From Bacteroidota bacterium (GTDB taxonomy: Bacteria; Bacteroidota; Bacteroidia; AKYH767-A; OLB10), in assembly GCA_025352785.1 (NCBI GenBank), contig JANXSD010000014.1, forward strand, positions 1 to 45,155: a stretch of 45,155 bases of DNA, written 5' to 3'. Numbering within the stretch: the first letter of the stretch is position 1; each line of letters begins with the position of its first letter. Both the position numbers and the translations under genes were made by a program. The notes under the pieces were generated by a model. The model saw only the letters and a program-made list of their open reading frames with translations. It was not told the origin of the DNA and did no database searches. This document shows positions 2,006 to 31,600 of this stretch, piece by piece.

Positions 2006-2031
2006 TGTGTTTTTTATTTGAAAGTACATTA

Positions 2032-14434: not shown

Positions 14435-14806
14435 ATGATATTACTTAGCGCACCTGTAGATTATCTTCCAATCGCCATGATGTTTGTGGTCGCAATGGGA
14501 TTCGTGCTTAGCACGATGGTAGCCACCCATTTGTTAGGGCCGAATCGCAAATCAAAAGTGAAATTAGAAACTTTCGAATGTGGTATTGAACCACAAGGAA
14601 ACTCACGAATGCCGTTCTCTATCAAGTATTTTTTGATAGCAATTCTTTTCGTTTTATTTGATGTTGAAGTAATATTTATGTATCCGTGGGCAGTAAATTT
14701 CAGATCGATGGGAGTGACAGGTTTACTCGAGATGTTCCTTTTTATGGGGATTCTAGTGTTAGGATTAATTTATATCATCAGAAAGGGTGCTCTAAAGTGG
14801 GAGTAA
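14435..14806 (+). CDS. nuoA: NADH-quinone oxidoreductase subunit A
   Basis: 123 residues with three transmembrane helices, as in the family. The signature CGIEPQGNSRMPFSIKYFLI in the loop after the first helix carries the conserved Cys-Gly-Ile/Glu and F/KYFLIAILF, followed by FDVEVIFMYPWA with the conserved Asp/Glu pair. It is part of the membrane arm at the quinone-site entrance, next to subunits H, J and K. First gene of the plus-strand nuo operon; nuoB starts 20 nt downstream. Confidence 0.96.
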   Translation: MILLSAPVDYLPIAMMFVVAMGFVLSTMVATHLLGPNRKSKVKLETFECGIEPQGNSRMPFSIKYFLIAILFVLFDVEVIFMYPWAVNFRSMGVTGLLEMFLFMGILVLGLIYIIRKGALKWE

Positions 14807-14826
14807 GAATTTAAAATCGAAGAAAG

Positions 14827-15363
14827 ATGTCGACGGAAGTTGTAAAATTAGAGGGATACGAAGGGCCTGGTTTCATGGCTACTTCTTTAGATAAGGCTAT
14901 AGGCTTGGCAAGGAAAAATTCTCTTTGGCCACTGCCTTTCGCAACTAGCTGTTGTGGAATTGAATTCATGGCCACAATGGCATCAACGTATGATCTAGGG
15001 CGATTTGGCTCTGAAAGATTAAGCTTCTCACCTCGCCAAGCCGATTTGCTAATGGTGATGGGAACGATAGCAAAAAAAATGGGTCCTGTTTTGCGACAAG
15101 TTTACGAACAGATGGCAGAACCAAAGTGGGTGATCGCTGTTGGCGCATGCGCATCAACAGGAGGAATTTTCGATACGTATTCTGTATTGCAAGGGATTGA
15201 CCGTATTATTCCTGTGGATGTATATGTTCCGGGATGCCCACCTCGTCCAGAACAAATTTTAGATGGCGTATTAAAAATTCAAGATCTAGTACATAACGAA
15301 TCTTTACGTAGAAGAAATTCTGCAGAATACCGTGAGATGTTAGCCTCTTACGGAATGGAATAA
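14827..15363 (+). CDS. nuoB: NADH-quinone oxidoreductase subunit B (N2 cluster)
   Basis: 178 residues. It holds the terminal [4Fe-4S] cluster N2 that reduces quinone. All four ligands are visible: the tandem Cys42-Cys43 in [10 protein letters not shown], Cys108 in VGACASTGG and Cys137 in [11 protein letters not shown]. It sits at the junction of the peripheral and membrane arms, binding NuoCD and NuoI. The start at ATG 14827 fits the family length. No abnormal residues. Confidence 0.97.
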
Positions 15364-15412
15364 AATCGAACTAAATTAAAGTCAACGAATTTTTCTCTAA
15401 CGCATAAATAGT

Positions 15413-15916
15413 ATGTCTGAATTAAGTAATGAGTTTGTAAATGATCAGTTGAAAGAAAAGTTTGGAGAAGCAATTCTCACTTCCGAAACACTATATGATT
15501 TTCTTACAGTAACAGTTAACAAGCAAGAAATATTTAATGTTATTCAATTCTTAAAAGAAGATTCTAAAATTAATTGTCATTTCTTAACTACGATGTGTGG
15601 CTTGCATTATCCTGATGCCATTGAACCTTTCGGGATGATGTATCAATTGCACAATATGCCTTTGAATTATCGTATCCGATTAAAAGCTTTTACGAGCGAT
15701 GCTGTGCCCATGTTTAAATCTTTAACTGTGTTATGGCCGTCTTCCAATTGGATGGAACGAGAGGCTTATGACTTTTTCGGTTTTCGTTTTGAAGGACATC
15801 CTAACTTACGACGAATATTAAATATGGATTCATTAGAAGGATGGCCAATGCGTAAGGAATTTCCTCTTGAAGATCCCTTCCGTTATGATAAAGATGATAA
15901 AATGTTTGGACGATAA
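15413..15916 (+). CDS. nuoC: NADH-quinone oxidoreductase subunit C (30 kDa)
   Basis: 167 residues. The signature region near the C-terminus reads EREAYDFFGFRFEGHPNLRR followed by GWPMRKEFPLED, the 30-kDa subunit hallmark. It is a hydrophilic peripheral-arm subunit, separate from NuoD here (fused as NuoCD in E. coli). It lies 49 nt after nuoB and 69 nt before nuoD. Confidence 0.96.
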   Translation: MSELSNEFVNDQLKEKFGEAILTSETLYDFLTVTVNKQEIFNVIQFLKEDSKINCHFLTTMCGLHYPDAIEPFGMMYQLHNMPLNYRIRLKAFTSDAVPMFKSLTVLWPSSNWMEREAYDFFGFRFEGHPNLRRILNMDSLEGWPMRKEFPLEDPFRYDKDDKMFGR

Positions 15917-15985
15917 TTTCTAATTCTTAACCAATATTAAAAACAAGTATCATCCAAGGAATTTTAATTAGAAGCGATCAAAAAA

Positions 15986-17191
15986 ATGTCAAATAATTAT
16001 ACTGTTATACAACCTAAAGAGTATACAACACTAAACCTCGGACCTACACACCCTGCAACACATGGAATTTTTCAAAATGTATTGAAGATGGACGGGGAGA
16101 TTATAGTTGAAGCAGAACCAACAATAGGATATATTCATCGCGCTTTCGAAAAGCTTGCTGAACGTCGCCCGTTTTATCAGATTACTCCCATTACTGATAG
16201 GTTAAATTATTGTTCGTCGCCAATCAATAACATGGGATGGCACATGACAGTAGAAAAACTTGCAGGCATTGAAATACCAAAACGTGTTCAATATTTGCGT
16301 GTGATCATCATGGAACTTTCTAGAATTTCTGATCACATTATTTGTAATTCAGTAATTGGTGTTGATAGCGGAGCGATGACGGGCTTCTTGTATATTTTTC
16401 AATGGCGCGAAAAAATCTACGAAATTTTTGAAGAGATATGTGGTGCACGTTTAACAACAAACATTGGACGTATTGGTGGATTAGAACGCGATTTTTCTCC
16501 AGTAGCATGGGAAAAACTTAATACGTTTTTAGAGGACTTTCCTGCGGGATTAAAAGAGTTCGACGACTTACTTGTACGCAATCGCATCTTTATGGATCGT
16601 ACTATTAAATGTTGTCCTATCACTGCGGAAATGGCTCTTGATTATGGCTTTACTGGTCCGAATTTACGCGCTGCAGGTGTTGATTATGATGTACGCATAA
16701 TGAATCCCTATTGTTCATATGATGAATTTGAATTTATTGTTCCAATTGGAACAAATGGTGATACGTATGATCGTTTTATGGTGCGTGATGAAGAGATGTG
16801 GCAGAGCTTAAGTATCATCCGCCAAGCAATTGTGAAACTCGATAAACTAGAGGATAAAACTTCTATTCATGCTGATGTTCCAGAATTTTATTTGCCTCCC
16901 AAAGAAGAGGTATACAATACGATGGAAGGTCTAATATGGCATTTCAAAATTGTGATGGGTGAAACAACAATTCCGAAAGGAGAAGTGTATCATTGTGTGG
17001 AAGGTGGTAACGGTGAATTAGGATTTTATCTTATCAGTGATGGAGGAAGAACTCCTTATCGTTTGCATTTCCGCCGACCATGTTTCATCTATTATCAAGC
17101 ATATCAAGAAATGATTAAAGGTGCGATGTTGAGTGATGCAATTTTAACAATGAGTTCAATGAACGTGATTGCTGGTGAGTTAGATTCTTGA
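15986..17191 (+). CDS. nuoD: NADH-quinone oxidoreductase subunit D (49 kDa)
   Basis: 401 residues, standard for an unfused NuoD. The N-terminus has LNLGPTHPATHGIFQNVL with the His that contacts quinone. Downstream are IGYIHRAFEKLAERRPFYQ and the C-terminal RLHFRRPCFIYYQ. Derived from the Ni-Fe hydrogenase large subunit without the metal centre; it forms the quinone pocket with NuoB. A 40-nt gap separates it from nuoE. Confidence 0.97.
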   Translation: MSNNYTVIQPKEYTTLNLGPTHPATHGIFQNVLKMDGEIIVEAEPTIGYIHRAFEKLAERRPFYQITPITDRLNYCSSPINNMGWHMTVEKLAGIEIPKRVQYLRVIIMELSRISDHIICNSVIGVDSGAMTGFLYIFQWREKIYEIFEEICGARLTTNIGRIGGLERDFSPVAWEKLNTFLEDFPAGLKEFDDLLVRNRIFMDRTIKCCPITAEMALDYGFTGPNLRAAGVDYDVRIMNPYCSYDEFEFIVPIGTNGDTYDRFMVRDEEMWQSLSIIRQAIVKLDKLEDKTSIHADVPEFYLPPKEEVYNTMEGLIWHFKIVMGETTIPKGEVYHCVEGGNGELGFYLISDGGRTPYRLHFRRPCFIYYQAYQEMIKGAMLSDAILTMSSMNVIAGELDS

Positions 17192-17231
17192 TTATAACGT
17201 GTATAATTTATTTTAGATTTAAATGTAGTTT

Positions 17232-17774
17232 ATGTGTGAAGAAATAAAATTTAGTGATGATGCATTCGCATTGGTAAAGCGTTTGATGAGTCGCTATCCG
17301 GAAGGAAAACAGAAGTCTGCGATATTGCCGATTTTACATGTTGCACAAGCAGAATTTGGTGGATGGCTAAGCGCTCCTGTAATGGATTACGTTGCTTCCA
17401 TTTTATCGATACAATCTATCGAAGTGTATGAAGTCGCATCATTCTATTCAATGTTTAATTTGAAGCCAGTTGGTAAATGTGTGATTGAAGTTTGTCGCAC
17501 AGGTCCGTGTTGGTTATCAGGTGCAGAAGATATCGTAAATTATATTGGTAAGAAATTAAATATTAAAGAAGGTGAAACTACAGTCGATGGAATGTTTACT
17601 CTTAAGGGAGTAGAGTGTTTAGCATCATGCGGATCAGCACCAATGATGCAAGTTGGAGAGAAGTATCATGAGTTTCTTACACCTGCAAAAATTGATACGA
17701 TTCTTGATGAATACCGTCAAACAACTTCTGAGCCTATTTCACATTGGGCGAAAAATGAAATTAAAGTAAATTAA
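17232..17774 (+). CDS. nuoE: NADH-quinone oxidoreductase subunit E (24 kDa, [2Fe-2S] N1a)
   Basis: 180 residues of the thioredoxin-like ferredoxin family. The [2Fe-2S] N1a ligands are Cys88 and Cys93 (CRTGPC) and Cys129 and Cys133 (CLASC). The N-terminal helical bundle includes YPEGKQKSAILPILHVAQ and VYEVASFYSMFN, typical of the family. It pairs with NuoF to form the NADH-oxidising module. Unusually, the next gene (6 nt later) is not nuoF but a DUF2442 gene. Confidence 0.96.
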   Translation: MCEEIKFSDDAFALVKRLMSRYPEGKQKSAILPILHVAQAEFGGWLSAPVMDYVASILSIQSIEVYEVASFYSMFNLKPVGKCVIEVCRTGPCWLSGAEDIVNYIGKKLNIKEGETTVDGMFTLKGVECLASCGSAPMMQVGEKYHEFLTPAKIDTILDEYRQTTSEPISHWAKNEIKVN

Positions 17775-17780
17775 ATTATT

Positions 17781-18053
17781 ATGAGTATTGTAAAACCCTT
17801 ATTAATTAAAACTGAACCAGGCTTTAAATTAATTATAAAGATTTCAGATGGTAATGAAGGTATAGTAGACCTTTCTGATTTAGTTGGTAAAGGTGTATTT
17901 AAGGAATGGAGCAATGGTGATTTATTTAACAAAGCATATATCGACGTAACAGGTGCTATTGCATGGAATGATGAATTGGATATTTGTTCTGATGCGTTAT
18001 ATGAGAGAATAATACGTAATGAAAGGTTAAATTTAATAGAGCCTTTAAAATAG
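17781..18053 (+). CDS. DUF2442 domain-containing small protein, inserted between nuoE and nuoF
   Basis: 90 residues, no signal peptide or membrane segment. The pattern of a short beta-rich protein with FKLIIKISDGNEGIVDLSDL, GVFKEWSNGDLFNKAYID and AIAWNDELDICSDALYERII matches DUF2442, whose members often end in a WPxGxDLxPDxLY-like motif. DUF2442 genes are frequent partners of DUF4160 genes and are suspected toxin-antitoxin or regulatory proteins; their function is not established. It begins 6 nt after nuoE and ends 13 nt before nuoF, so it is almost surely on the nuo mRNA. No DUF4160 partner is adjacent. A role in complex I is not supported by the family. Confidence 0.82.
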   Translation: MSIVKPLLIKTEPGFKLIIKISDGNEGIVDLSDLVGKGVFKEWSNGDLFNKAYIDVTGAIAWNDELDICSDALYERIIRNERLNLIEPLK

Positions 18054-18066
18054 TATGTTTTAAATT

Positions 18067-19413
18067 ATGGGAATTAAATTACTAACGAATAATATTAACG
18101 TTGCAGGTATTCAGAAACTGGATACGTATCAAAATAATGGTGGTTACGACATGTTCAAAAAAGCATTGTCGATGACTCCTGATGCAATTGTTGAAGAAGT
18201 AAAAAAATCTGGTTTACGCGGACGAGGAGGTGCAGGATTTCCTACTGGAATGAAATGGAGTTTTCTTGCTAAGCCAGAAGGGGTGCCACGTTATTTAGTT
18301 TGTAATGCAGATGAAAGTGAGCCTGGGACATTTAAAGATCGTTACATGATGGAACGTATTCCACACCTGCTCATCGAAGGAATGGCAATCGGAAGTTTTG
18401 CATTAGGATGTCACACATCTTATATTTATATCCGTGGTGAATTAATGTACGTTTATCATATTTTACAAAAAGCAATTGATGAAGCGTATGCTGCAGGATT
18501 TTTAGGAAAAAATATTTTAGGTAGCGGTTTTGATTTCGATTTACATGTGCATTGTGGTGCAGGAGCATATATCTGCGGAGAAGAAACTGCATTGATTGAA
18601 TCGCTAGAAGGTAAACGTGGAAACCCTCGCATTAAACCACCATTTCCTGCGATAAGAGGTTTATGGGATTGCCCTACTGTTGTGAATAATGTTGAAACAT
18701 TAATGGCAGTTGTTCCGATTATAAAATTAGGTGGCGATGAATATGCAAAAATCGGAATTGGAAAAAGTACAGGAACAAAATTAATTTCTGCATGCGGACA
18801 CATCAATAAGCCTGGCATCTATGAAATTGAATTGGGAATTCCTGTAGAAGAATTTATTTATTCTGATGAATATTGTGGTGGAATAAGAAATGGAAAAAAA
18901 TTAAAAGCAGTTGTTGCGGGAGGTTCTTCCGTTCCTGTTTTACCTGCTGAATTAATATTAAAACTAGCAAATGGCGAACCACGTTTGATGTCCTATGAAT
19001 CACTTGGTGAAGGTGGTTTTGCAACAGGAACGATGATGGGTTCGGGAGGGTTTATTGCGATGGATGAAGATACTAGCATCGTAAAAAATCTCTGGACATT
19101 CGCACGTTTTTATCATCACGAAAGTTGTGGACAATGTAGTCCTTGCCGTGAAGGAACTGGTTGGATGGAAAAAATTCTTCACAAAATTCTTGATGGACAT
19201 GGTAACATTTCCGACATCGATTTGCTGTGGGATATTCAATCAAAAATTGAAGGCAAAACAATTTGCCCGTTGGGTGAAGCTGCAGCATGGCCTGTTGCAA
19301 GTGCAATACGACATTTCAGAAGTGAATTCGAAGAGTATGTTCGGAATCCACAAAATATAATAGAAGATCATCATTATTACCGGTTGAATAATATCTCACA
19401 GGAATCAGTATAA
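18067..19413 (+). CDS. nuoF: NADH-quinone oxidoreductase subunit F (51 kDa; NADH, FMN, N3)
   Basis: 448 residues, full length. The NADH/FMN-binding region has [17 protein letters not shown] and [19 protein letters not shown]. The N3 [4Fe-4S] ligands are Cys354, Cys357 and Cys360 (SCGQCSPC) plus Cys400 (TICPLGE). It oxidises NADH and passes electrons from FMN into the cluster chain. Its presence with E and G shows this complex accepts NADH, unlike the 11-subunit forms known from some bacteria and chloroplasts. nuoG follows 12 nt downstream. Confidence 0.97.
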
Positions 19414-19425
19414 GCAAATTACATT

Positions 19426-20406
19426 ATGCCGAAAGTCACTATCGACGGTCAGTCAATTGAAGTACCAGAGGGAACAAGTATCCTTCAGGCAGCACGCTTG
19501 ATAGGAGGAGATATTGTACCTCCAGCAATGTGTTATTATTCGAAACTAAAAACGAGTGGAGGATATTGCCGTACCTGTATCGTAAAAGTTACGAAAGGCT
19601 CAGAGAAAGATCCTCGTCCGATGCCTAAGCCTGTTGCATCTTGTCGCACCAATGTGATGGATGGAATGGAAGTGCAAAATATCACAGCTCCTGATTTAGT
19701 GGAAGCTAGAAAAGGTGTTGTAGAATTTTTATTAATCAATCATCCTCTCGATTGCCCCATTTGTGATCAGGCTGGTGAATGTGATTTGCAAAACTTAAGT
19801 TATAGTCATGGTATCGAAAAATCTCGCTACGAATTTAAACGTCGTGAATTTGAAAAGATTGATATCGGTGAAAATATTAAATTGCACATGACACGTTGCA
19901 TCCTTTGTTATCGTTGTGTAAAGGTTGCCGAACAAGTTTGTGAAAGCCGTGATCACGGTGTGATTGGCAGAGGCGATGTTGCAGAAATTAGCACCTATAT
20001 TCAGAAAGCTGTCGATAAAGATTTTTCAGGAAACATGATTGATGTTTGTCCTGTTGGTGCATTAACAGATCGTACTTTCAGATTTAAAAGTCGTGTGTGG
20101 TTTACAAAACCAATGAATGCACATCGTAAATGTACAAAGTGTTCAGGTAAAACAGTTGTTTGGTTAAGTGGTGATGATGTGTTACGTGTTACTGCAAGAA
20201 AAGATAAATTTGGTGAAGTAGAAGAATGGATCTGTAATGAATGCCGTTTCGAAAGAAAAGAAACAAAAGACTGGAACATAGAAGGACCACGACATATCGA
20301 TCGCCAATCTGTGATTGCACAAAATCATTATGAAGTGAATAAACAACTGAAGATTGATGTTTCAAATCAAAAACTTCTTGGTGAGAAAGCACATAACAAA
20401 CAATAG
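19426..20406 (+). CDS. nuoG: NADH-quinone oxidoreductase subunit G, short form
   Basis: 326 residues, versus about 900 in E. coli. It keeps all N-terminal cluster sites: [2Fe-2S] N1b (Cys36, 48, 51, 73), N5 (His106, Cys110, 113, 119) and N4 (Cys158, 161, 164, 208, the last in DVCPVGALTD). After about residue 230 only the start of the molybdopterin-like domain remains, with two CxxC pairs (Cys236/239 and 270/273) whose spacing differs from the N7 motif. The protein then ends. Short NuoG proteins of this kind are common in Bacteroidota, so I read this as the native form, not a truncation; the downstream sequence to nuoH (59 nt) shows no remnant. Confidence 0.93.
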   Translation: MPKVTIDGQSIEVPEGTSILQAARLIGGDIVPPAMCYYSKLKTSGGYCRTCIVKVTKGSEKDPRPMPKPVASCRTNVMDGMEVQNITAPDLVEARKGVVEFLLINHPLDCPICDQAGECDLQNLSYSHGIEKSRYEFKRREFEKIDIGENIKLHMTRCILCYRCVKVAEQVCESRDHGVIGRGDVAEISTYIQKAVDKDFSGNMIDVCPVGALTDRTFRFKSRVWFTKPMNAHRKCTKCSGKTVVWLSGDDVLRVTARKDKFGEVEEWICNECRFERKETKDWNIEGPRHIDRQSVIAQNHYEVNKQLKIDVSNQKLLGEKAHNKQ

Positions 20407-20465: not shown

Positions 20466-21497
20466 ATGGAATTTATACTCTTCAAATTAGTTTTAGTGAT
20501 TTCAGTTTTCGTTGCTTCGTTGTTGATAGCAATGTATTCAACATACGGTGAACGAAAAATTGCAGCATTCTTTCAAGATCGATTGGGACCGAATAGAGCA
20601 GGTCCATTTGGTTTGCTACAACCTCTCGCTGATGGCGTGAAGATGTTTATGAAAGAAGAAATTATTCCTACCAATGCTGATAAGGCCTTGTTCATTTTAG
20701 GTCCTTGCGTGATGATGATGACTGCCTGCATGACGGGAGTTGTAATTCCATGGGGAAATAGTTTAATCATTGGCGGTCAAGAATACATGATGCAGATTAC
20801 TGATATTAATATTGGAATTCTTTATGTTTTCGGTGTGGTTTCTATTGGTGTTTATGGTATCATGATCGGTGGATGGGCATCCAATAATAAGTATTCATTA
20901 ATGGGAGCTATTCGTGGTTCATCACAAATGATTAGTTACGAATTAGCAATGGGACTTGCAATCATCGCACTAATAATGACGACAGGAACATTGAGTATTC
21001 GTGAAATGGTGCAGCAACAACATGGCGCACATTGGAATGTGTTTTATCAACCATTAGGATTTTTACTATTCATTATCTGTGCGTTTGCAGAATGTAACCG
21101 CACACCATTTGATTTGCCTGAATGTGAAACGGAATTGGTTGGAGGTTATCACACCGAATACAGTTCGATGAAATTGGGATTTTATTTGTTTGCTGAATAC
21201 ATCAATATGTTCATCAGTTCTGCCATCATTGCTTCCTTATATTTTGGCGGATACAACTTCCCATTTCTCAGCAATTTAGGGTTATCACACAACGCATTGA
21301 GCTTGCTTGGAACCGCAGTCTTCTTCGGAAAAATATTCTTCTTTATCTTTTTGTTCATGTGGATACGTTGGACAATCCCTCGTTTTCGTTATGATCAATT
21401 GATGCATTTAGGATGGAGAATAATGATTCCACTTGCATTATTTAATATTCTGCTTACAGCACTTGTTGTATTGTGGAGAAGCGGACAGTTAGGTTGA
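20466..21497 (+). CDS. nuoH: NADH-quinone oxidoreductase subunit H
   Basis: 343 residues, about eight transmembrane helices. Conserved loops: YGERKIAAFFQDRLGPNRAG, then LLQPLADGVKMFMKEE, and later AFAECNRTPFDLPECETELV and GGYHTEYSSMKLGFYLFAEY. It forms the quinone channel and links the peripheral and membrane arms. The gap to nuoI (22372) is 874 nt, occupied by two accessory genes, whereas H and I are usually adjacent. Confidence 0.97.
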   Translation: MEFILFKLVLVISVFVASLLIAMYSTYGERKIAAFFQDRLGPNRAGPFGLLQPLADGVKMFMKEEIIPTNADKALFILGPCVMMMTACMTGVVIPWGNSLIIGGQEYMMQITDINIGILYVFGVVSIGVYGIMIGGWASNNKYSLMGAIRGSSQMISYELAMGLAIIALIMTTGTLSIREMVQQQHGAHWNVFYQPLGFLLFIICAFAECNRTPFDLPECETELVGGYHTEYSSMKLGFYLFAEYINMFISSAIIASLYFGGYNFPFLSNLGLSHNALSLLGTAVFFGKIFFFIFLFMWIRWTIPRFRYDQLMHLGWRIMIPLALFNILLTALVVLWRSGQLG

Positions 21498-21540: not shown

Positions 21541-22119
21541 TTGCAAAATAAAGAACTTGTAATTATTGGAGGACCGAATGGGTCGGGTAAAACCACTTTC
21601 GCTAGAATATTTCTCGAACAAAATAAAAAATATATTTTTATTAATGCCGACGAAATTGCGAAAGAGAATTCTGATGACAAGTCTAAGGGTGGAAATATAG
21701 GTGCTGGTAAAATTTATTTTAAACGGATTGAAGAATTGTTTAAAAAGGGAAAATCATTATTAATTGAATCTACAATGTCAGGATTATTTCTTGGCAGGTT
21801 TTTGAAAGAGTTTAGAAAAGCGGGTTATTCAATTAAATTAATTTATATTACAATTAATAGTGCAGAAGGATGCATTCAACGTATTCAAGATAGAATAAAA
21901 AAAGGGGGTCATTTTGTACCTGATGAAGACGTTATTAGAAGATATTATAGAGGACGAAAGTATTTCTGGAATAATTATCGAAACTTTGCGGACGAATGGC
22001 ATTTATATAATAACACCGATAGGTTTGAGATGATTGCAATTGGTAACAAATCAAATTTTGTAATTGCAAATGATATATTGTATGATAACTTTATTAATTC
22101 ACTAGATGAGAATGGCTAA
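21541..22119 (+). CDS. Zeta-toxin-like P-loop kinase / AAA ATPase, inserted between nuoH and nuoI
   Basis: 192 residues from a TTG start; the only nearby upstream in-frame stop is at 21508, and TTG puts the Walker A motif (GGPNGSGKTT, residues 10-19) at the N-terminus as in the family. FINADEIA (residues 33-40, Asp37-Glu38), LLIESTMSG and RIKKGGHFVPDEDVIRRYYR match the zeta-toxin-like ATPases of COG4185. Zeta proteins phosphorylate UDP-N-acetylglucosamine; activity of this branch is not established, so toxicity is inference. The 3' end overlaps the next small gene by 14 nt, the usual arrangement for this family and its small companion. Located 43 nt after nuoH, hence probably cotranscribed with nuo. 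Confidence 0.85.
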   Translation: MQNKELVIIGGPNGSGKTTFARIFLEQNKKYIFINADEIAKENSDDKSKGGNIGAGKIYFKRIEELFKKGKSLLIESTMSGLFLGRFLKEFRKAGYSIKLIYITINSAEGCIQRIQDRIKKGGHFVPDEDVIRRYYRGRKYFWNNYRNFADEWHLYNNTDRFEMIAIGNKSNFVIANDILYDNFINSLDENG

Positions 22120-22339
22120 CACGAATATAAGTAAAATCAAAGACAAGAATTTGTTTAGAAATGCTATTGAATTTTTGACCATAGGGAATATTGGCGTCAA
22201 TAGAGCGATAGAAGAAAGTATAAGTTTGGGTCTCCCTGTTGTATTTGGATACATGAATACAGTTCTGTTTAGAATGCCCGATGGCACCATCACCTCAAAA
22301 AGTCCTTACAAGAAAATTGTTCAGAAAAAGAAGAGCTAA
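22106..22339 (+). CDS. Small partner protein of the zeta-like kinase (possible antitoxin)
   Basis: 77 residues (75 if the second ATG at 22112 is used), overlapping the kinase gene's last 14 nt. It is basic at the C-terminus (KIVQKKKS). An N-terminal helix is followed by RAIEESISLGLPVVFGYM, then a beta hairpin and RMPDGTI. The pattern of a residue-dense helix, an RLGxPVVxxxxG-like turn and a short beta segment is what small genes beside COG4185 kinases commonly encode. I infer it is the kinase's partner or antitoxin; there is no direct evidence. Antitoxin genes more often lie upstream of zeta genes, so the order here is worth noting. Confidence 0.68.
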   Translation: MRMANTNISKIKDKNLFRNAIEFLTIGNIGVNRAIEESISLGLPVVFGYMNTVLFRMPDGTITSKSPYKKIVQKKKS

Positions 22340-22371: not shown

Positions 22372-22911
22372 ATGCAGCTTACCAATAGATCTAAAGTAGT
22401 CGTAAATAAGGAAATGTCATTGATGGAGCGATTGTATTTGCCTGCAATTGCTGGTGGAATGATGATCACCTTAAAGCATTTCTTCCGCAAATCTGTTACG
22501 ATTAATTATCCAGAAGAAACCCGACCGATGGCTCCTGTTTATCGTGGTTGGCATGTGCTAAAACGCGACGAACAAGGACGAGAAAATTGCACCGCATGTG
22601 GTTTATGTGCCGTTGCGTGTCCTGCTGAAGCGATTACAATGACGGCTTCCGAACGAAAAAAGGGGGAAGAAAACCTTTATCGCGAAGAAAAATATGCATC
22701 TGTTTATGAGATCAATATGTTGCGTTGCATTTACTGTGGATTATGCGAAGAAGCTTGCCCAAAGGAAGCTATCTTCCTAACAGATAGGCTCGTACCTTCT
22801 GGTGTGGATAGAGCAAGTTTCATCTATGGCAAGGATAAATTGGTAGAAGGAGTGGAAGCGGATCAACGAATTGATATCGGAAAACGAACAAAAGCGCATC
22901 GTAAAATATAA
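22372..22911 (+). CDS. nuoI: NADH-quinone oxidoreductase subunit I (N6a, N6b)
   Basis: 179 residues. Two [4Fe-4S] ferredoxin motifs: Cys73-76-79-83 (CTACGLCAVAC) and Cys119-122-125-129 (CIYCGLCEEAC). An amphipathic N-terminal segment contacts the membrane arm. It conducts electrons from NuoG to cluster N2 in NuoB. It resumes the nuo order 32 nt after the inserted pair. Confidence 0.96.
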   Translation: MQLTNRSKVVVNKEMSLMERLYLPAIAGGMMITLKHFFRKSVTINYPEETRPMAPVYRGWHVLKRDEQGRENCTACGLCAVACPAEAITMTASERKKGEENLYREEKYASVYEINMLRCIYCGLCEEACPKEAIFLTDRLVPSGVDRASFIYGKDKLVEGVEADQRIDIGKRTKAHRKI

Positions 22912-22973: not shown

Positions 22974-23471
22974 TTGGAACCAAGTTTACCATTTTATATT
23001 CTTGCCACATTATCAGTGTTTAGCGCATTGATGGTTGTGTTATCGCGTAAGCCGGTACATAGTGTATTGTACCTTATTTTTTGCTTCTTCACAATAGGTT
23101 GTCATTACCTGCTTTTAAATGCGCAATTTCTTTTTGCAGTACATATCATCGTGTATACAGGTGCTATCATGGTACTCTTTCTTTTCTCCATCATGTTTAT
23201 TAATATGAATAAAGAATCGGAGCCTCATAAAAATACACTCATCAAAATTGCAGCAGGTGTACTAGCTGGATTGTTATTTCTGGTATTACTTGAAGCAACA
23301 AAAGGTGCCGAAACATTAGGACCTCCATCACCAAACGAAAGTTATAGTACTGTTGCTAATCTTGGCAAAGTACTTTACGGACAATATTTATTACCCTTCG
23401 AAATTATTTCTATCATGCTGCTCTCTGCTATGGTGGGTGCCGTAATGCTTGGTAAAAAAAGTGTTGATTAA
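22974..23471 (+). CDS. nuoJ: NADH-quinone oxidoreductase subunit J
   Basis: 165 residues, about five transmembrane helices. The TTG start at 22974 is needed to include the first helix ([16 protein letters not shown]) seen in all NuoJ; the next ATG would delete it. Conserved [11 protein letters not shown] and [20 protein letters not shown] contain the bulge-forming region of TM3. C-terminal [14 protein letters not shown] matches the family. The 62-nt gap before it contains TATTTTCG at 22940-22947, a weak match to a -7 element, so an internal promoter is possible but unproven. Confidence 0.93.
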
Positions 23472-23484
23472 TAAAGACATCGAA

Positions 23485-23805
23485 ATGAATAATATCCTGC
23501 ATGTCGTTCCGCTTAGCTATTATGTAGCACTGTCTTCACTACTATTTACAATTGGTGTGATGGGCGTATTATTTCGTCGCAATGCAATAATCATTTTCAT
23601 GTGTATTGAACTTATGTTAAATGCAGTTAATTTATTGTTGACAGCTTTCTCAGCACAACATGGCGATGCAAGTGGTCAAGTAATGGTATTCTTTATCATG
23701 GCCGTTGCTGCTGCAGAGGTGGCTGTCGGGCTAGCAATTCTCGTAATGATTTATAATAATATTCGAACTGTTGATATCAATGAGCTTAACAAACTCAAAT
23801 GGTAA
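23485..23805 (+). CDS. nuoK: NADH-quinone oxidoreductase subunit K
   Basis: 106 residues from the ATG at 23485, close to the usual 100. A longer frame opens at a TTG at 23449 inside the nuoJ 3' end, but this would add 12 residues unlike the family. Three helices, with conserved glutamates in [14 protein letters not shown] (TM2) and [16 protein letters not shown] (TM3), part of the proton-pathway series. Starts 13 nt after the nuoJ stop codon. Confidence 0.94.
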
Positions 23806-23871
23806 ATAATTTTTAATGTAGGAGGTTGTGTGGGGGGATTATCAGATATATAAAAAGTAGAAATAAAAAAC

Positions 23872-25764
23872 ATGATTCAATTAGCTTGGCTGATACCGCT
23901 CTTTCCTTTACTGGGTTTCCTGGTGATAGGAATGCTGAACAAGCGTTTGCCAGTAAGCTTAAGCGGTGCAATTGCTAGTTTATCAGTATTCCTATCTTTC
24001 GTTGTTTCAGTAATCATTTTTAATGAGATACATCAGGTGGGTTCTGTTCCCGAACGTATTTTAATGTTTGATTGGATTAATGTTGGTGACTTAAATATTC
24101 CCTTTTCTTTTCTGATTGATCGTCTATCGGTGATTATGTTATTAGTGATTACGGGTGTTGGATTTTTGATACATGTTTATTCGATTGGATATATGCAGCA
24201 TGAGCAAGATCATTCACGCTTTTTTTCTTACTTAAATCTATTTATATTTTTTATGTTGCTCCTTGTATTAGGTGCAAATTATATCGTGATGTTCGCAGGA
24301 TGGGAAGGAGTTGGATTATGCTCTTATCTGCTAATAGGATTTTGGTTTAAATACACGGAATACAACAATGCTGCGAAGAAAGCTTTTATCATGAATCGCA
24401 TTGGTGATTTGGGATTTTTGCTGGGTATCTTTTTAATCTATACAACATTTGGAAGTGTTAGTTATCAAGAAGTATTTAATGCTGCCAAAGGTTTTCCTGA
24501 TGGTGATGCTGCAATAACTGCAATTACACTTCTTTTGTTTGTTGGGGCGATGGGAAAATCTGCACAAATACCACTTTATACTTGGCTTCCAGATGCGATG
24601 GCAGGACCAACACCAGTTTCTGCATTAATACATGCCGCTACGATGGTAACTGCCGGTATTTATATGGTGATTCGCTCTAACGTATTGTATACTTTAGCGC
24701 CATACTCTTCAGAGATTGTTGCAATTGTTGGATTAGTTACTGCAGTTTTCGCAGCAACAATTGGTTTGAAGCAAAATGATATTAAAAAAGTATTGGCATA
24801 TTCCACAGTGAGTCAGTTAGGATATATGTTTGTTGCGCTTGGTGTTGGCGCTTATGATACTGCCTTGTTTCATGTTGTGATGCACGCATTTTTTAAAGCC
24901 TTATTATTCCTTGGTGCTGGTTCTGTAATTCATGCCATGAGTGGCGAACAAGATATCCGTTACATGGGCGGACTAAAAAAGAAATTACCAATCACGCATA
25001 TCACTTTTTTAATTGGAACATTAGCAATTGCTGGAGTATTTCCTTTTGCAGGATTCTTTTCTAAAGATGAGATTCTTTCAAAAGTATATGCCTTCTCGCC
25101 ATTCATGTTTGTGGTATTGATGTTTACATCTGCATTAACTGCCATCTATATGTTTAGATTGTATTGGTTAACTTTTTACGGATCTTTTAGAGGGACAGAA
25201 CAACAACGTACTCATTTGCATGAGTCACCATCAAGTATGACTATGCCATTAATAATTCTTGCACTACTTTCAACTATTGGAGGATTTTTAGGAATGCCAG
25301 AAGTTTTCCATGTACCACATTATTTTAGTGAATTTCTGTCTTCTATTATATATCGTAAAGCAGAACTCACTTTGCCAGAATCGTCGGAGTTGATGGTGAT
25401 GGGAGGATCATTAACAATGGTTGTATTAATTATTATAATGACATACAATCATTACGTTAAAAAAGCGGTAATGCCTGAAACGAATGAAGGTGAGTTGCGC
25501 GGATTTCAAAAAGTACTTTCTCATAAATATTATATCGATGAAATATATTCTGCGCTCATAACAAAACCTATCGATTGGCTAGCCTCCTTTAGTTACAAGC
25601 GAATCGAATTAGGAGTAATTGATCGTATCGTAAATGGAAGTGGTTATATATTAAATGGAATTAGTTCGCTTTTGCGTTATGTTCAAACTGGTAGTATCGG
25701 AACGTATGTTTTCGGAATGGTTATCGGAATTATTTTACTCGTTGCTTTAACTATGATTCACTAA
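23872..25764 (+). CDS. nuoL: NADH-quinone oxidoreductase subunit L (proton-pumping)
   Basis: 630 residues, antiporter-like with about 16 helices. GWEGVGLCSYLLIGFW carries the conserved Glu of TM5. DAMAGPTPVSALIHAATMVTA is a hallmark loop. KKVLAYSTVSQLGYMF follows the conserved Lys region. The C-terminal extension after about residue 510 (KYYIDEIYSALITKP onward) forms the lateral helix that spans the membrane arm. nuoM begins 6 nt later. Confidence 0.97.
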   Translation: MIQLAWLIPLFPLLGFLVIGMLNKRLPVSLSGAIASLSVFLSFVVSVIIFNEIHQVGSVPERILMFDWINVGDLNIPFSFLIDRLSVIMLLVITGVGFLIHVYSIGYMQHEQDHSRFFSYLNLFIFFMLLLVLGANYIVMFAGWEGVGLCSYLLIGFWFKYTEYNNAAKKAFIMNRIGDLGFLLGIFLIYTTFGSVSYQEVFNAAKGFPDGDAAITAITLLLFVGAMGKSAQIPLYTWLPDAMAGPTPVSALIHAATMVTAGIYMVIRSNVLYTLAPYSSEIVAIVGLVTAVFAATIGLKQNDIKKVLAYSTVSQLGYMFVALGVGAYDTALFHVVMHAFFKALLFLGAGSVIHAMSGEQDIRYMGGLKKKLPITHITFLIGTLAIAGVFPFAGFFSKDEILSKVYAFSPFMFVVLMFTSALTAIYMFRLYWLTFYGSFRGTEQQRTHLHESPSSMTMPLIILALLSTIGGFLGMPEVFHVPHYFSEFLSSIIYRKAELTLPESSELMVMGGSLTMVVLIIIMTYNHYVKKAVMPETNEGELRGFQKVLSHKYYIDEIYSALITKPIDWLASFSYKRIELGVIDRIVNGSGYILNGISSLLRYVQTGSIGTYVFGMVIGIILLVALTMIH

Positions 25765-25770
25765 TACGGC

Positions 25771-27225
25771 ATGCTGACATTACTCCTGCTCTTCATACCT
25801 CTTATTGCCTCTCCACTTTGCGCCGTAATCAGCCGTGATAAAGTAAAGTACTTTGCCTTGGTGGTTAGCTTGCTTCAATTAGCAGCTATTGTTTATGCAT
25901 TCACTTTATTTAAATCAGATATCGCCAATCAATTCGGAGTTAATTATTGGTGGATTCAATCATTAGGAATCGCTTTTAAAGCGGGCTTCGATGGTATTAG
26001 TATTTTGATGGTTGCACTTACCAATTTTTTAATACCGTTAATTATTCTTTCTTCCTTCAGAAATGAAAATGAAAACCCAAAAGCATTTTACGGATTAATA
26101 CTTTTCATGCAATTTGCACTGGTTGGAGTATTTACGGCATTAGATGGTTTTCTGTTTTATGTGTTCTGGGAGTTAGCACTAATTCCAATTTATTTTATAT
26201 GCCTTATGTGGGGTGGAAAAGATAAAGTTAGAATTACTTTAAAGTTTTTCATCTATACTTTAGCAGGAAGTTTATTGATGTTAGTTGGATTGATTTACCT
26301 CTATCTTCAAACACCTGGTATTCACACCTTCGACATTCAATCATTTTATAATGTAACACTAACTCCTGAAGCGCAAGGATGGTTATTCTGGGCATTCTTT
26401 ATCGCCTTCGCCATCAAAATTCCGATATTTCCGTTACACACTTGGCAGCCTGATACCTATACGGATGCACCAACACAAGGAACCATGCTTTTGTCGGGAA
26501 TCATGTTAAAAATGGGACTTTATGGAATGATTCGTTGGATGTTACCGATAGTACCAATTGGCATCAACGAATGGGGGCATTTTGCAATGATACTTTGCGT
26601 GATTAGTATTGTGTATTCTTCCTTAATGGCGTTTGTTCAAAAAGATTTCAAACGATTAATTGCTTATTCTTCTATCGCACACGTTGGTTTAATTGCAGCA
26701 GGAATTTTATCGTTAAACATTCAAGGATTGCAAGGTGCGATGATTCAAATGTTGAGTCATGGTGTTAACGTGGTTGGAATGTTTTTCATCGTTGATATCA
26801 TCCAACGTAAAATGAAAACACGAAATCTTGCTGAACTCGGCGGGCTAGCGAATAATTCACCCATCTTTACAATCCTTTTTATGATTGTCTTGTTAGCATC
26901 CATCGCCCTTCCATTAACAAATGGATTTGTAGGAGAATTTTTATTGCTCAATGGGATTTATCAATACAATGCTTGGATTGCCGCATGTGCAGGATTAACG
27001 GTAATTCTTGGATCGGTATATATGCTTCGAGCATATCAAGCAATCATGCTTGGCGAACCAAATGCAAAATATACAGAGTTTACGGGTTTAAGTAAAATAG
27101 AAAAAATTATACTGGTATCAATTGTATCGGTAATCTTCATAACAGGAATATATCCAAAGCCAATATTTATGGTTGCTCAACCTGCGCTTGAAGATATCCT
27201 GGTTCATATTAAAGACATCTACTAA
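25771..27225 (+). CDS. nuoM: NADH-quinone oxidoreductase subunit M (proton-pumping)
   Basis: 484 residues, antiporter-like with about 14 helices. FYVFWELALIPIYFIC contains the conserved TM5 Glu. IPIFPLHTWQPDTYTDAPTQ and FKRLIAYSSIAHVGLI are family motifs with conserved Lys. SHGVNVVGMFFIVDI is the TM12 region. Only 3 nt separate it from nuoN. Confidence 0.97.
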   Translation: MLTLLLLFIPLIASPLCAVISRDKVKYFALVVSLLQLAAIVYAFTLFKSDIANQFGVNYWWIQSLGIAFKAGFDGISILMVALTNFLIPLIILSSFRNENENPKAFYGLILFMQFALVGVFTALDGFLFYVFWELALIPIYFICLMWGGKDKVRITLKFFIYTLAGSLLMLVGLIYLYLQTPGIHTFDIQSFYNVTLTPEAQGWLFWAFFIAFAIKIPIFPLHTWQPDTYTDAPTQGTMLLSGIMLKMGLYGMIRWMLPIVPIGINEWGHFAMILCVISIVYSSLMAFVQKDFKRLIAYSSIAHVGLIAAGILSLNIQGLQGAMIQMLSHGVNVVGMFFIVDIIQRKMKTRNLAELGGLANNSPIFTILFMIVLLASIALPLTNGFVGEFLLLNGIYQYNAWIAACAGLTVILGSVYMLRAYQAIMLGEPNAKYTEFTGLSKIEKIILVSIVSVIFITGIYPKPIFMVAQPALEDILVHIKDIY

Positions 27226-27228
27226 AGC

Positions 27229-28605
27229 ATGAATGCCTTAATAGTTATAGCCTGTTTAGGAATTGCGGCAATGATGTCGGAAGTATTGGGCTTTAAAAAG
27301 CTTTTACTTCCCTTAGTTGCGATTGGCTTGATTTCAGTTGTTGGTCTGTTTGTAATGGATTGGAATACTTCTATCCGTTATTATCATGATATGCTTTATT
27401 TCGATAATTATGCAATTGCATTTTCAGCAATGGTTACCGTTTTAACAGCACTATGGCTCATCATGTCGAAGGAGTATTTTATCTCTACTACTAGCAAGGC
27501 AGAACATGCTGCACTCATTTTGTTTTGTTTAACTGGTGCAATTGTGATGATCAGTTATTCGGATTTGTCCATGTTATTTATAGGCATCGAAATATTATCA
27601 ATCAGTTTATATGTTTTAGCAGCAAGTAATAAACACGATTTAAGATCGAATGAAGCCGGACTAAAATATTTTTTGATGGGAGCCTTTGCAACGGGTTTTT
27701 TACTTTTTGGAATTACATTGATTTATGGCGCCTCTGGGAGTTTTAATTTACAAGAAATCGCAAATTATTTAAGTAAAAATTCTGAGCATCTACCAATGTT
27801 TGTATATGCTGGTGTTTTATTAATGCTAGTAGGATTGCTTTTCAAAGTGTCAGCAGCACCTTTCCATTTTTGGGCTCCTGATGTTTATGAAGGTTCACCA
27901 ACTCTCGTAACCGCATTTATGTCGACGATTGTAAAGACAGCAGCATTTGCTGCATTTTATAGGTTATTCGCGACTTGTTTCAGTGATTTATCAGGATGGT
28001 GGGGTGAAACATTGGCCATTGTAGCCGCGCTCACAATGTTGGTTGGGAATGTCTTGGCTGTTATGCAGCAGAACTTTAAACGAATGTTGGCCTATTCAAG
28101 TATCGCACATGCAGGGTATATGCTTATGGCAATTGTGGCGATGAATCATATTTCAGCAGGTGCAATTTTCTTGTACACTTCGGCCTATTCAATAGCTAGT
28201 TTAGGTGCCTTTGCATGTTTACATGCGTTAGGAGCAAATGACAATGAAAAAATTATCAATCTTCGAGGATTTATAGCAAAACAACCTTTTAATGCCGGTT
28301 TATTATGCCTTGCAATGCTATCCTTGGCCGGAATTCCACCTTTAGCAGGATTTTTTGCGAAATATTATTTGTTTTATGGTGTAATTCAGAGTGGTTATTT
28401 ATGGCTGGTGCTGGTTGCCGTTCTGAGCTCCTTAATTGGTGTTTATTATTACTTCCGAGTGATTTATACTATGTTTTTACCTCGGGAAGAGGAAGATGGA
28501 GTGCTCCCAAAAATTTCTGGAGGTCATAAAATATTGTTAACGATTGTAGCGATTTTATCCCTTCTAATGGGTATTTTTCCAGGAATTTTGCAAGGAATTC
28601 TTTAA
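27229..28605 (+). CDS. nuoN: NADH-quinone oxidoreductase subunit N (proton-pumping)
   Basis: 458 residues, antiporter-like. MLFIGIEILSISLYVLAASN carries the conserved TM5 Glu; FHFWAPDVYEGSPTLVTAFM and FKRMLAYSSIAHAGYMLMAI are family signatures. Last gene of the 14-subunit operon. No strong terminator is visible in the 90 nt between its stop and the giant adhesin gene, so some read-through into the next cassette is possible. Confidence 0.97.
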   Translation: MNALIVIACLGIAAMMSEVLGFKKLLLPLVAIGLISVVGLFVMDWNTSIRYYHDMLYFDNYAIAFSAMVTVLTALWLIMSKEYFISTTSKAEHAALILFCLTGAIVMISYSDLSMLFIGIEILSISLYVLAASNKHDLRSNEAGLKYFLMGAFATGFLLFGITLIYGASGSFNLQEIANYLSKNSEHLPMFVYAGVLLMLVGLLFKVSAAPFHFWAPDVYEGSPTLVTAFMSTIVKTAAFAAFYRLFATCFSDLSGWWGETLAIVAALTMLVGNVLAVMQQNFKRMLAYSSIAHAGYMLMAIVAMNHISAGAIFLYTSAYSIASLGAFACLHALGANDNEKIINLRGFIAKQPFNAGLLCLAMLSLAGIPPLAGFFAKYYLFYGVIQSGYLWLVLVAVLSSLIGVYYYFRVIYTMFLPREEEDGVLPKISGGHKILLTIVAILSLLMGIFPGILQGIL

Positions 28606-28695: not shown

Positions 28696-31600
28696 ATGTC
28701 ATTGTTAATTAAGTTAGGTTCAACATTTATTAATAAAACTTATTTGTTGCTTGGGGGCATTGTCATCTTTTTTTGTACAAATGCAAACGCAAGTTTAAAT
28801 CTAGATATCAATGGTAAGCTCTTAAATCATTCAAATAATATAACCCCGCTTTTATTTGGATTGGGTGTTACCGTCTCCAATTTTAATGGAGTAAATATTA
28901 GTTGCAATGGCGTTAATGATGGTACGATTTCTATTGTCCCTAATGGTGGTGTTAATCCGTATACTTATGCATGGTCGAACGGTGCTTCGGCCGCAGATTT
29001 AACTGGACTTTTTGCAGGCACGTATACTGTAACGGTTACTGATAATAATGGAGACACGGAATCAACTACAGTTACATTAACAGAACCCAATCAATTAATT
29101 CTAACTAATTCAACTACCAATGTGCTTTGCAATGGTGCATCAACAGGAGCAATTGATTTAACAGTTGCTGGAGGAACAACTAATTATTCGTATGCTTGGA
29201 GTAATGGAGCTATCACGCAAGATCTCACTGGAAAAATTGCTGGTACTTATAACGTAACCGTTACCGATGCGAATTCGTGTACTGCTACAACCTCCGCAAC
29301 CATCACACAACCTGCCGCATTAAATTTATCGACAACAGTTACAAATGCAGGATGTGCTGGAGCACAAACAGGAAGTGTAAACTTAACAGTTTCGGGAGGT
29401 AATCCATCTTACACTTACTTGTGGAGTAATGGTGCACTTACACAAAATTTAAATAACGTTGCAGCAAATACGTATACTGTAACCGTTACCGATTTGAATT
29501 CTTGTACTGCTAAAATATCAGCAACTGTTTCGCAGCCATCAACAATTAATATTAATATTATTCCCGTTAATGGAACATGTAACGCAGCAAATGGCTCTGC
29601 TTCTGCTATCGTTGTTGGAGGAACATTGCCCTATTCGTATTTATGGAATACGGGATCCGTATCTCCTGTAATTAGCGGACTTGCAGCAGGAACATATACT
29701 GTAACCGTTACTGATTTATTTGGTTGCACAGGAATTTCGTCAGCTTTAGTTGGCAATAGCGGTTCACCAATAATTACTGTTACAGCAATAACGAATGTGT
29801 CCTGCCATAACGGTAATAACGGGGCAATCGATATAACTATTTCAGGGGGTCAACCATTATATAGTTATTCATGGAGTAACGGAGCTTTAACACAAGATTT
29901 ATCGGGGCTCGCTACAGGTGTTTTTACAGTTACTGTAACGGATAATAATTTATGTTCATCTGCAAAATCAATTACCGTTAGTCAACCTCAAGCAATAACA
30001 TTTACGAATACAAATACTAACGTATCCTGTTTCGGCGGAACAAATGGCGCAATTGATATCACTGTTTTTGGCGGAACAATTCCATACAGTTATTTATGGA
30101 ATTCAGGAGCGATTACACAAGATATTTCTGGAAAGATTGCAGGTACATATCTTGTTACTGTTACTGATGCAAATAGTTGCACAGCTAATTCGTCGTTTAC
30201 ACTCACACAACCTACAACTTTAGCATTAATAGTAAGCACCAATCAGGCAACATGTGGAAGTGTTAATGGTTCCGCTACAGCAACTCCATCAGGAGGTACT
30301 AGTCCTTATATTTATTTATGGAATACCAGCGCTACAACGGCTACAATAAATGGATTATCTCCTGCCATCTATACCGTTACAGTAACAGATTTTAACGGTT
30401 GTACTATTTCAAAATCTATTCAAGTTACATCGGCAAATGCACCAGTTATCTCGAGTGCTCTGGTAACAAATGTTTCTTGTAACGGAGGATCGAATGGTGC
30501 AATAGATATTTCTGTAACTGGAGGAGTTGGAACGATATCTTATTTGTGGAGCAACAGTAGTGTATCACAAGATTTAACAGGACTTTCTATAGGTACATTT
30601 ACTGTAACAGTTACTGATGCTAATCTTTGTACCACTTCAGCAAACTACACTTTAACCCAACCAGCGAGTATCAATGCAACTGCAATAATCACAAATTTAG
30701 CATGTAATGCAGTCCCTACAGGAGTAATTAATATTACACCATCAGGCGGTACGGGAGCGTATACTTATTTATGGAGCAATGCAGCAACAACACAAGATAT
30801 TTCTTCTGTTTCTGCAGGTTCTTTTTCGGTAACTATTACTGATGTGTTTAGTTGTACAGCCGTAAAAATCTTTAATGTTACACAACCTTTAGCACTTAAT
30901 ATAGCTTCTGTTGTTACAAATGTAAGTTGTCATTCAGGTAATAATGGAAGTATAAATATTACTGTAAGTGGAGGCGTTAGTTCCTATACCTTTCAATGGT
31001 CAAATGGAATTCTTACGGAAGATTTAGTTGCACTTACTTCAGGAACTTATACCGTAACCGTTACCGATCAAAATGGATGCAAAGCATCTGCTTCGTATCC
31101 CATTACTCAACCTGCAACATTAGCTGTAAGTTTTACTAGTATAAATAGTAGCTGTGGTTCTAGCAATGGGTCTATTAATGCGAATGCAATTGGAGGAACA
31201 ACACCATATACTTATCTCTGGAGTAATAATGCCACTACGCAACAGATTACCTCACAATTGGCAGGAACATATACTGTAACAATTACCGACCTTAATTCCT
31301 GTACAGTGATAGGAACAAAAACAATTTCTAATCAAGCTGCTCCGGTTATTAGTGTTATTACAACAAGTCCTGTATTGTGTTTTGGTGGAAGTACAGGTTC
31401 CATTACATTAACAATTACAGGTGGTACTTTTCCGTTAACTTATTTGTGGAGTAATAGTGCTACAACTAAAAATATTAATGGAGTTGTTGCCAATACGTAT
31501 ACCGTTACAGTAACGGATGCAAACAATTGCACTACAACAGCTATTGATTCAGTTCTTCAACCTTCTGCTCTTAGTATAGTTTTTACTGCAACGCAACCAA

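What the first reader, a model, noticed from the sequence alone, without database searches (positions are those of the whole stretch)
21541..22339. Zeta-toxin-like kinase and small partner gene embedded in the complex I operon
The 14 nuo genes run in canonical order but nuoH and nuoI are separated by 874 nt holding a P-loop kinase (GGPNGSGKTT, FINADEIA, GGHFVPDE motifs) and an overlapping small basic partner. Both are codirectional with tight spacing (43 nt after nuoH, 14-nt overlap, 32 nt before nuoI), so they are probably cotranscribed with respiration genes. Toxin-antitoxin modules are usually autonomous; placement inside an essential respiratory operon would tie their dosage to NADH dehydrogenase expression, or stabilise the operon against loss.
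Basis: partly seen in the sequence, partly recalled or inferred. Interest (0 to 1): 0.62.

Follow-up and report, generated by a model that had tools for sequence, protein, structure and literature searches.

The report
Kinase–inhibitor gene pair inside complex I operon
A two-gene module that looks like a poison kinase and its antidote sits inside the operon for respiratory complex I, where it was probably inserted once in an ancestor of this bacterial order and has since been lost many times, seemingly kinase first; such small selfish-looking modules turn out to invade this operon often in this class of bacteria.

Summary
A 192-aa zeta-toxin-fold kinase (21541-22119) and a 77-aa partner (22106-22339) lie codirectionally between nuoH and nuoI, in a 14-gene nuo operon that also holds a DUF2442 (DhiA-like antitoxin) gene between nuoE and nuoF. 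The pair is a real, cross-phylum module: in all but one of about 40 related kinases examined (the exception looks fused or frameshifted), a homologous partner follows immediately. The partner family has no Pfam, PHROG or PDB match. The kinase folds like zeta, PezT and AvrRxo1, with the catalytic motifs kept.

The same pair sits at nuoH|nuoI in five other genomes of two families in the order (one with a broken kinase); a seventh keeps the partner alone. The five intact nuo-embedded kinases form one clade (support 100/94), pointing to one old insertion and many losses. Kinase loss with partner retention recurs elsewhere; the reverse was not seen: the polarity expected of toxin and antitoxin.

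The setting is not unique: of 141 nuo operons in the class, 64 have a gap over 230 nt and 14 hold TA-like genes; ribosomal operons do not (1/464 versus 94/1426 junctions).

Best reading: a passenger TA-like module using nuo transcription, not a complex I factor. Toxicity, substrate and co-transcription are untested.

The parts
21541..22119 (+). zeta-toxin-fold P-loop kinase (192 aa, TTG start), the presumed toxin
   Evidence: PF06414 51.4 bits; AF2 model pLDDT 92 matching zeta, PezT and AvrRxo1; 27 invariant residues kept
22106..22339 (+). small partner (77 aa; a second ATG lies at 22112), the presumed antitoxin or inhibitor; undescribed family
   Evidence: conserved immediately downstream of related kinases across phyla; no Pfam, PHROG or PDB family
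20466..21497 (+). nuoH, upstream neighbour
   Evidence: PF00146 E=2e-121
22372..22911 (+). nuoI, downstream neighbour
   Evidence: tandem 4Fe-4S domains; 75-81% identity to nuoI at the same junction in the family
17781..18053 (+). second inserted TA-like gene: solitary DUF2442 (DhiA-like antitoxin) between nuoE and nuoF
   Evidence: PF10387 37.4 bits, cut-off 23.9; NCBIfam DhiA E=1.5e-4, far below its cut-off
14435..20406 (+). nuoA, B, C, D, E, (DUF2442), F, G: upstream part of the host operon
22974..28605 (+). nuoJ, K, L, M, N: downstream part of the host operon

Best explanation
The pair is a toxin-antitoxin-like module: a small-molecule kinase of the zeta/PezT/AvrRxo1 fold, followed and translationally coupled to a ~70-aa inhibitor of an undescribed family. 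It was probably inserted once between nuoH and nuoI in an ancestor of at least two families of this order. It is read out with the nuo mRNA and behaves as a passenger: the kinase decays or is deleted first and the partner persists. Shown: anatomy, fold, motif conservation, obligate pairing, shared junction, monophyly, decay polarity. Inferred: toxicity, inhibition by the partner, co-transcription, and substrate (a nucleotide or nucleotide-sugar).
For: Zeta_toxin domain and fold. All 27 invariant kinase residues (Walker A G..GSGKTT region, NADEI, E76, T78, GGH, R133/R134/R137) are kept in the five intact nuo copies. Partner follows the kinase in about 40 related loci across phyla. Pair at nuoH|nuoI in G000, G017, G021, G029, G030, with a broken kinase and intact partner in G028. 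Nuo kinases are one clade, 100/94, split by host family. Partner without kinase: G002 at the nuo site, G645 at a site where its congener G653 has both genes, and G505 and G599. No promoter or terminator signal above chance in the insert. Pair also on a Persephonella plasmid. The same decay polarity is reported for avrRxo1:arc1 (PMC4938570).
Against: No direct evidence of toxicity, binding or co-transcription. Patchy distribution needs about 12 losses against 7 gains on the host tree, so repeated gain at one junction is not excluded. The kinase stays AT-richer than nuo in every genome, which a very old vertical insertion might have lost. The broken kinase in G028 rests on one draft assembly. 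Kinases without partner may be under-sampled, since the searches began from paired loci.
Confidence: 0.65

Rival explanations
1. The pair was recruited by complex I as a regulator: the kinase modifies NAD(H) or a quinone-related metabolite, and its place in nuo tunes respiration or stabilises the operon.
For: Held at the same junction across two families; AvrRxo1, a near structural neighbour (TMq 0.75), phosphorylates NAD (PMC5491322, PMC5087710).
Against: Most relatives with complete nuo operons lack it; the same pair lives away from nuo in many phyla; at least five unrelated TA kinds sit in nuo operons of the class; the flanking nuo segments track the host genus, not the pair.
Confidence: 0.1
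2. Independent insertions into one hot junction: nuoH|nuoI attracts this module repeatedly instead of one ancestral insertion.
For: Scattered presence, 7 changes minimum and no better than shuffled labels; nuoH|nuoI also took four-helix-bundle genes, ClpP and others in other families; AT-rich kinase.
Against: Nuo kinases are one clade that splits by host family. Independent insertions from a diverse pool should not be monophyletic unless the pool is specific to the order, and no nuo-clade kinase was found elsewhere in the order.
Confidence: 0.2
3. The kinase is a nucleic-acid or RNA-repair kinase with a chaperone-like partner, not a toxin.
For: Polynucleotide kinases score as high as zeta in structure (4gp7 Z 16.0) and first in a profile search of PDB sequences (Pnkp1).
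Against: The best full-length match is to zeta and AvrRxo1 (180-188 residues aligned versus about 156 for PNK); no ligase or phosphatase neighbour; partner outlives kinase, which is odd for a chaperone.
Confidence: 0.05

Closest known systems
AvrRxo1:Arc1 toxin-antitoxin module (PMC4938570)
   Same: Zeta-fold kinase encoded first, small antitoxin gene immediately downstream; antitoxin stays intact when the toxin gene is a pseudogene; best query TM-score (0.75)
   Different: About 15% identity; AvrRxo1 is about 414-421 aa; Arc1 is 81-98 aa and gave no structural match to the partner; not linked to nuo
epsilon/zeta and PezAT type II TA systems
   Same: Kinase fold (1gvn Z 16.3, PezT Z 15.3), Walker A, catalytic Asp-like D37, PF06414
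   Different: Kinase lacks the long C-terminal part (192 vs about 240-270 aa); antitoxin is downstream, predicted as one helix plus a beta hairpin, with no match to epsilon or PezA
Rv0366c-Rv0367c non-canonical PezAT-like pair (PMC6362051)
   Same: Short chromosomal zeta-like kinase with a non-standard antitoxin
   Different: Its antitoxin is upstream with an RHH domain
TA modules inserted in nuo operons (DhiAT, ParE-type, MntA/HepT, HicAB), found here
   Same: Small codirectional TA-like modules between nuo genes
   Different: Unrelated families at other junctions and in other lineages

Membership tests
Zeta_toxin (Pfam PF06414) | Profile score above the curated cut-off | tested here: met
   51.4 bits against 22.3
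Zeta_toxin (Pfam PF06414) | Zeta kinase fold with Walker A and catalytic Asp | tested here: met
   K17/T18 and D37 invariant; equivalence of D37 to zeta D67 is inferred from motif and position
epsilon/zeta (PezAT) TA system | epsilon/PezA-type antitoxin gene upstream of the kinase | tested here: not met
   nuoH lies 43 nt upstream; partner is downstream
epsilon/zeta (PezAT) TA system | Antitoxin with epsilon or PezA fold | tested here: inconclusive
   partner model is helix plus beta hairpin with no PDB match; no Pfam hit
epsilon/zeta (PezAT) TA system | UNAG-binding residues and UNAG kinase activity | not testable with these tools
   no residue-level structural alignment was available; no assay
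epsilon/zeta (PezAT) TA system | Kinase toxic, neutralised by partner | not testable with these tools
   needs expression assays
AvrRxo1:Arc1 | Toxin gene first, small antitoxin gene directly downstream | tested here: met
   order in PMC4938570
AvrRxo1:Arc1 | Partner homologous to Arc1 | tested here: inconclusive
   no sequence or structural match
Type II TA module (generic) | Adjacent, coupled, obligate gene pair | tested here: met
Type II TA module (generic) | Antitoxin can persist without toxin, not the reverse | tested here: met
   5 partner-only or kinase-broken loci; no kinase-only locus among about 40 type-1 kinases, one fused or frameshifted; few cases, draft genomes
Complex I accessory gene | Co-occurs with nuo in relatives and is linked to nuo | tested here: not met
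   absent from most complete nuo operons; present away from nuo in other phyla

The most novel reading that the evidence does not exclude
Bacteroidota-type nuo operons act as a landing strip for promoterless hitch-hiking TA and 23S-IVS-like modules that live off host operon transcription; in this order the resident kinase may act on NAD(H), AvrRxo1-like, so that complex I expression and NAD phosphorylation became coupled.
Probability: 0.08. Interest if true: 0.8.

Novelty: new variant of a known kind. Interest (0 to 1): 0.5.

Why it matters
It gives a widespread zeta-like kinase module with an undescribed ~70-aa partner family whose decay pattern predicts which gene is toxin and which antitoxin. 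It also shows that a core respiratory operon is repeatedly colonised by TA-like and 23S-IVS-like modules in one class of bacteria. If co-transcription and toxicity hold, it makes directly testable whether TA modules persist as parasites of host operons without a promoter of their own, a contested question about chromosomal TA systems.

Tried and rejected
(1) Search for the kinase in viral contigs with profile A3: no relative; 2 weak phage records. (2) Remnants of the pair in the other nuoH|nuoI gaps of the order: none detectable, including the long gaps of G022 and G025. (3) Recombination of the flanks as the cause of patchiness: flanking nuoH and nuoI segments track the host genus, no signal; old events cannot be excluded. 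(4) Sigma-70-like or Bacteroidetes-type promoters and terminators in the insert: no excess over shuffles. (5) Sulfurovum pair near nuoA (L082): an opposite-strand gene lies between, so it is not embedded. (6) Literature: no paper found on COG4185 by name or on TA genes inside nuo operons; the library is open-access only. (7) Fold search with the partner: no match above noise; absence is not proof of a new fold.

Full report
OBSERVATION. In relatives the kinase and partner genes usually overlap by 4 nt, typical of translational coupling.

WHAT THE GENES ARE. The kinase scores 51.4 bits for PF06414 Zeta_toxin, cut-off 22.3. Its AF2 model (pLDDT 92) matches zeta 1gvn (Z 16.3, 180 residues), AvrRxo1 4z8v (Z 16.0, 188 residues), bacterial polynucleotide kinase 4gp7 (Z 16.0, 156 residues) and PezT 2p5t (Z 15.3); by query TM-score AvrRxo1 is best (4z8u 0.75). 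Across 25 kinases, 27 columns are invariant, and the window copy and the four other intact nuo copies keep them all. The partner belongs to a family with a core motif IGNxAVxxAQ...GIPNVYSKNGxxYFQLPDGTITxxxP and has no Pfam, NCBIfam, PADLOC, PHROG or PDB relative. It is predicted as a long helix and a beta hairpin without structural match.

THE PAIR AS A MODULE. tblastn and ORF inspection of 80 GTDB loci show the partner directly after the kinase in Bacteroidota, Acidobacteriota, Aminicenantes, Lentisphaerota, Planctomycetota, Elusimicrobiota, Campylobacterota and others. More distant kinases carry other short downstream partners, for example a 64-aa protein in Gastranaerophilales. A pair lies beside conjugation genes on a Persephonella plasmid, so the module can travel; it is essentially absent from viral collections.

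THE nuoH|nuoI SITE. In the order, the pair is at this junction in G000 (window), G017, G021, G029 and G030. G028 has a kinase with an internal, frame-changing deletion (only residues 1-23 and 79-184 align) but an intact partner, and G002 has the partner alone. Other nuo operons of the order have a short nuoH-nuoI gap (mostly 14-66 nt, up to 183) without remnants. The five intact nuo kinases form one clade with support 100/94, split into the two host families. On a nuo-protein host tree the character is scattered: 7 changes at least, or about 12 losses by my hand count if gained once. Flank identities follow host genus rather than presence of the pair. I read this as one old insertion followed by many losses; repeated gain is a live rival. 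The kinase remains AT-richer than nuo in every genome, for example GC3 0.48 against 0.71-0.81 in G030, which I cannot fully explain by age.

POLARITY OF DECAY. Besides G002 and G028, the partner stands without kinase in G645, exactly where its congener G653 has both genes between the same neighbours, and in G505 and G599. Among about 40 type-1 kinases none lacks a partner; L055 looks fused or frameshifted. This is what toxin and antitoxin predict, and the same is reported for avrRxo1:arc1, where arc1 is intact even downstream of avrRxo1 pseudogenes and the antitoxin gene is also the downstream one (PMC4938570). The searches started from paired loci, so kinase-only cases could be under-sampled.

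THE SETTING IS NOT UNIQUE. In 141 nuo operons of the class, 94 of 1426 junctions exceed 230 nt and 64 operons have at least one. Gaps were measured between tblastn alignment ends, so some are a little overestimated, and about 15 contain no ORF of 45 aa. The inserted ORFs include 23S-rRNA-IVS/four-helix-bundle proteins (13), zeta kinases (6), MntA-like nucleotidyltransferases (4) with HepT (3), GxxExxY proteins (4), ParE toxins (2), DUF2442 (2; one with DUF4160/DhiT), HicAB and ORF6N. By my count 14 operons hold TA-like genes, all on the nuo strand. In 20 ribosomal S10-spc operons, after setting aside the rpsS-rpsC interval in which rplV was not among the queries, 1 of 464 junctions exceeded 230 nt. 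In the same 20 genomes nuo gives 14 of 212 (Fisher p about 7e-7); junctions are not fully independent, and ribosomal operons are an extreme comparator.

MECHANISM. Most likely: the pair is transcribed from the nuo promoter (inferred from spacing and from the lack of any own signal) and translated as a coupled unit. The partner holds the kinase inactive (inferred from pairing and decay order), and a freed kinase would phosphorylate a nucleotide or nucleotide-sugar and stop growth (inferred from fold; substrate open, since zeta family members act on UDP-amino-sugars or NAD: PMC3062530, PMC5923241, PMC5491322, PMC5087710). The pair gains stable transcription from a highly conserved operon; I found no evidence that complex I gains anything. 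Three near-complete genomes of the order (G001, G018, G024) show no close nuoH homologue, only a 43-47% paralogue, so the main nuo operon itself can be lost here; the sample is too small to test stabilisation.

VERDICT. A new variant of a known kind: a zeta-fold kinase TA-like module with an undescribed downstream partner, in an unusual but not unique place. Interest 0.5.

Noticed in passing
window 17781-18053 (+): Solitary DUF2442 (DhiA-like antitoxin) gene between nuoE and nuoF; in G122 (L199) the same junction holds a DUF2442 + DUF4160 (DhiA/DhiT) pair.
   Followed up: partly
L169 (G028), nuoF|nuoG, nuoG|nuoH and nuoH|nuoI: One nuo operon carries three inserts: a 23S-IVS four-helix-bundle gene, a ParE-type toxin with a 76-aa upstream ORF, and the broken kinase plus partner.
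   Followed up: partly
L190, L204, L217, L225, L230, L231, L243, L244, L268, L285: 23S-rRNA-intervening-sequence/four-helix-bundle proteins (PF05635) are the commonest insert in nuo operons of the class (13 ORFs), twice per operon in G126 and G061.
   Followed up: partly
L184 and L185, nuoH|nuoI: An intact ClpP gene sits between nuoH and nuoI in two genomes of family f15.
   Followed up: no
L162, L163, L164, L165, nuoI|nuoJ: A conserved 106-107 aa lipoprotein-like ORF lies between nuoI and nuoJ in all four fetched g10 genomes.
   Followed up: no
L298 (G505) 1489-2344 (-): A solitary partner gene lies directly after a SocA/Panacea antitoxin-domain gene and near a ParE-like pair.
   Followed up: no
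L082 4998-5546 (+): Sulfurovum kinase with a changed Walker A (GSGKI instead of GSGKT) but an intact partner, in a TA cluster near nuoA.
   Followed up: no
window 28696-36201 (+): 2501-aa protein made of many short repeats (VTVTDxxGC type), apparently an SprB-like adhesin, directly downstream of nuoN.
   Followed up: no
window 19426-20406 (+): nuoG is short (326 aa) and matched only the N-terminal Fe-S cluster domains.
   Followed up: no
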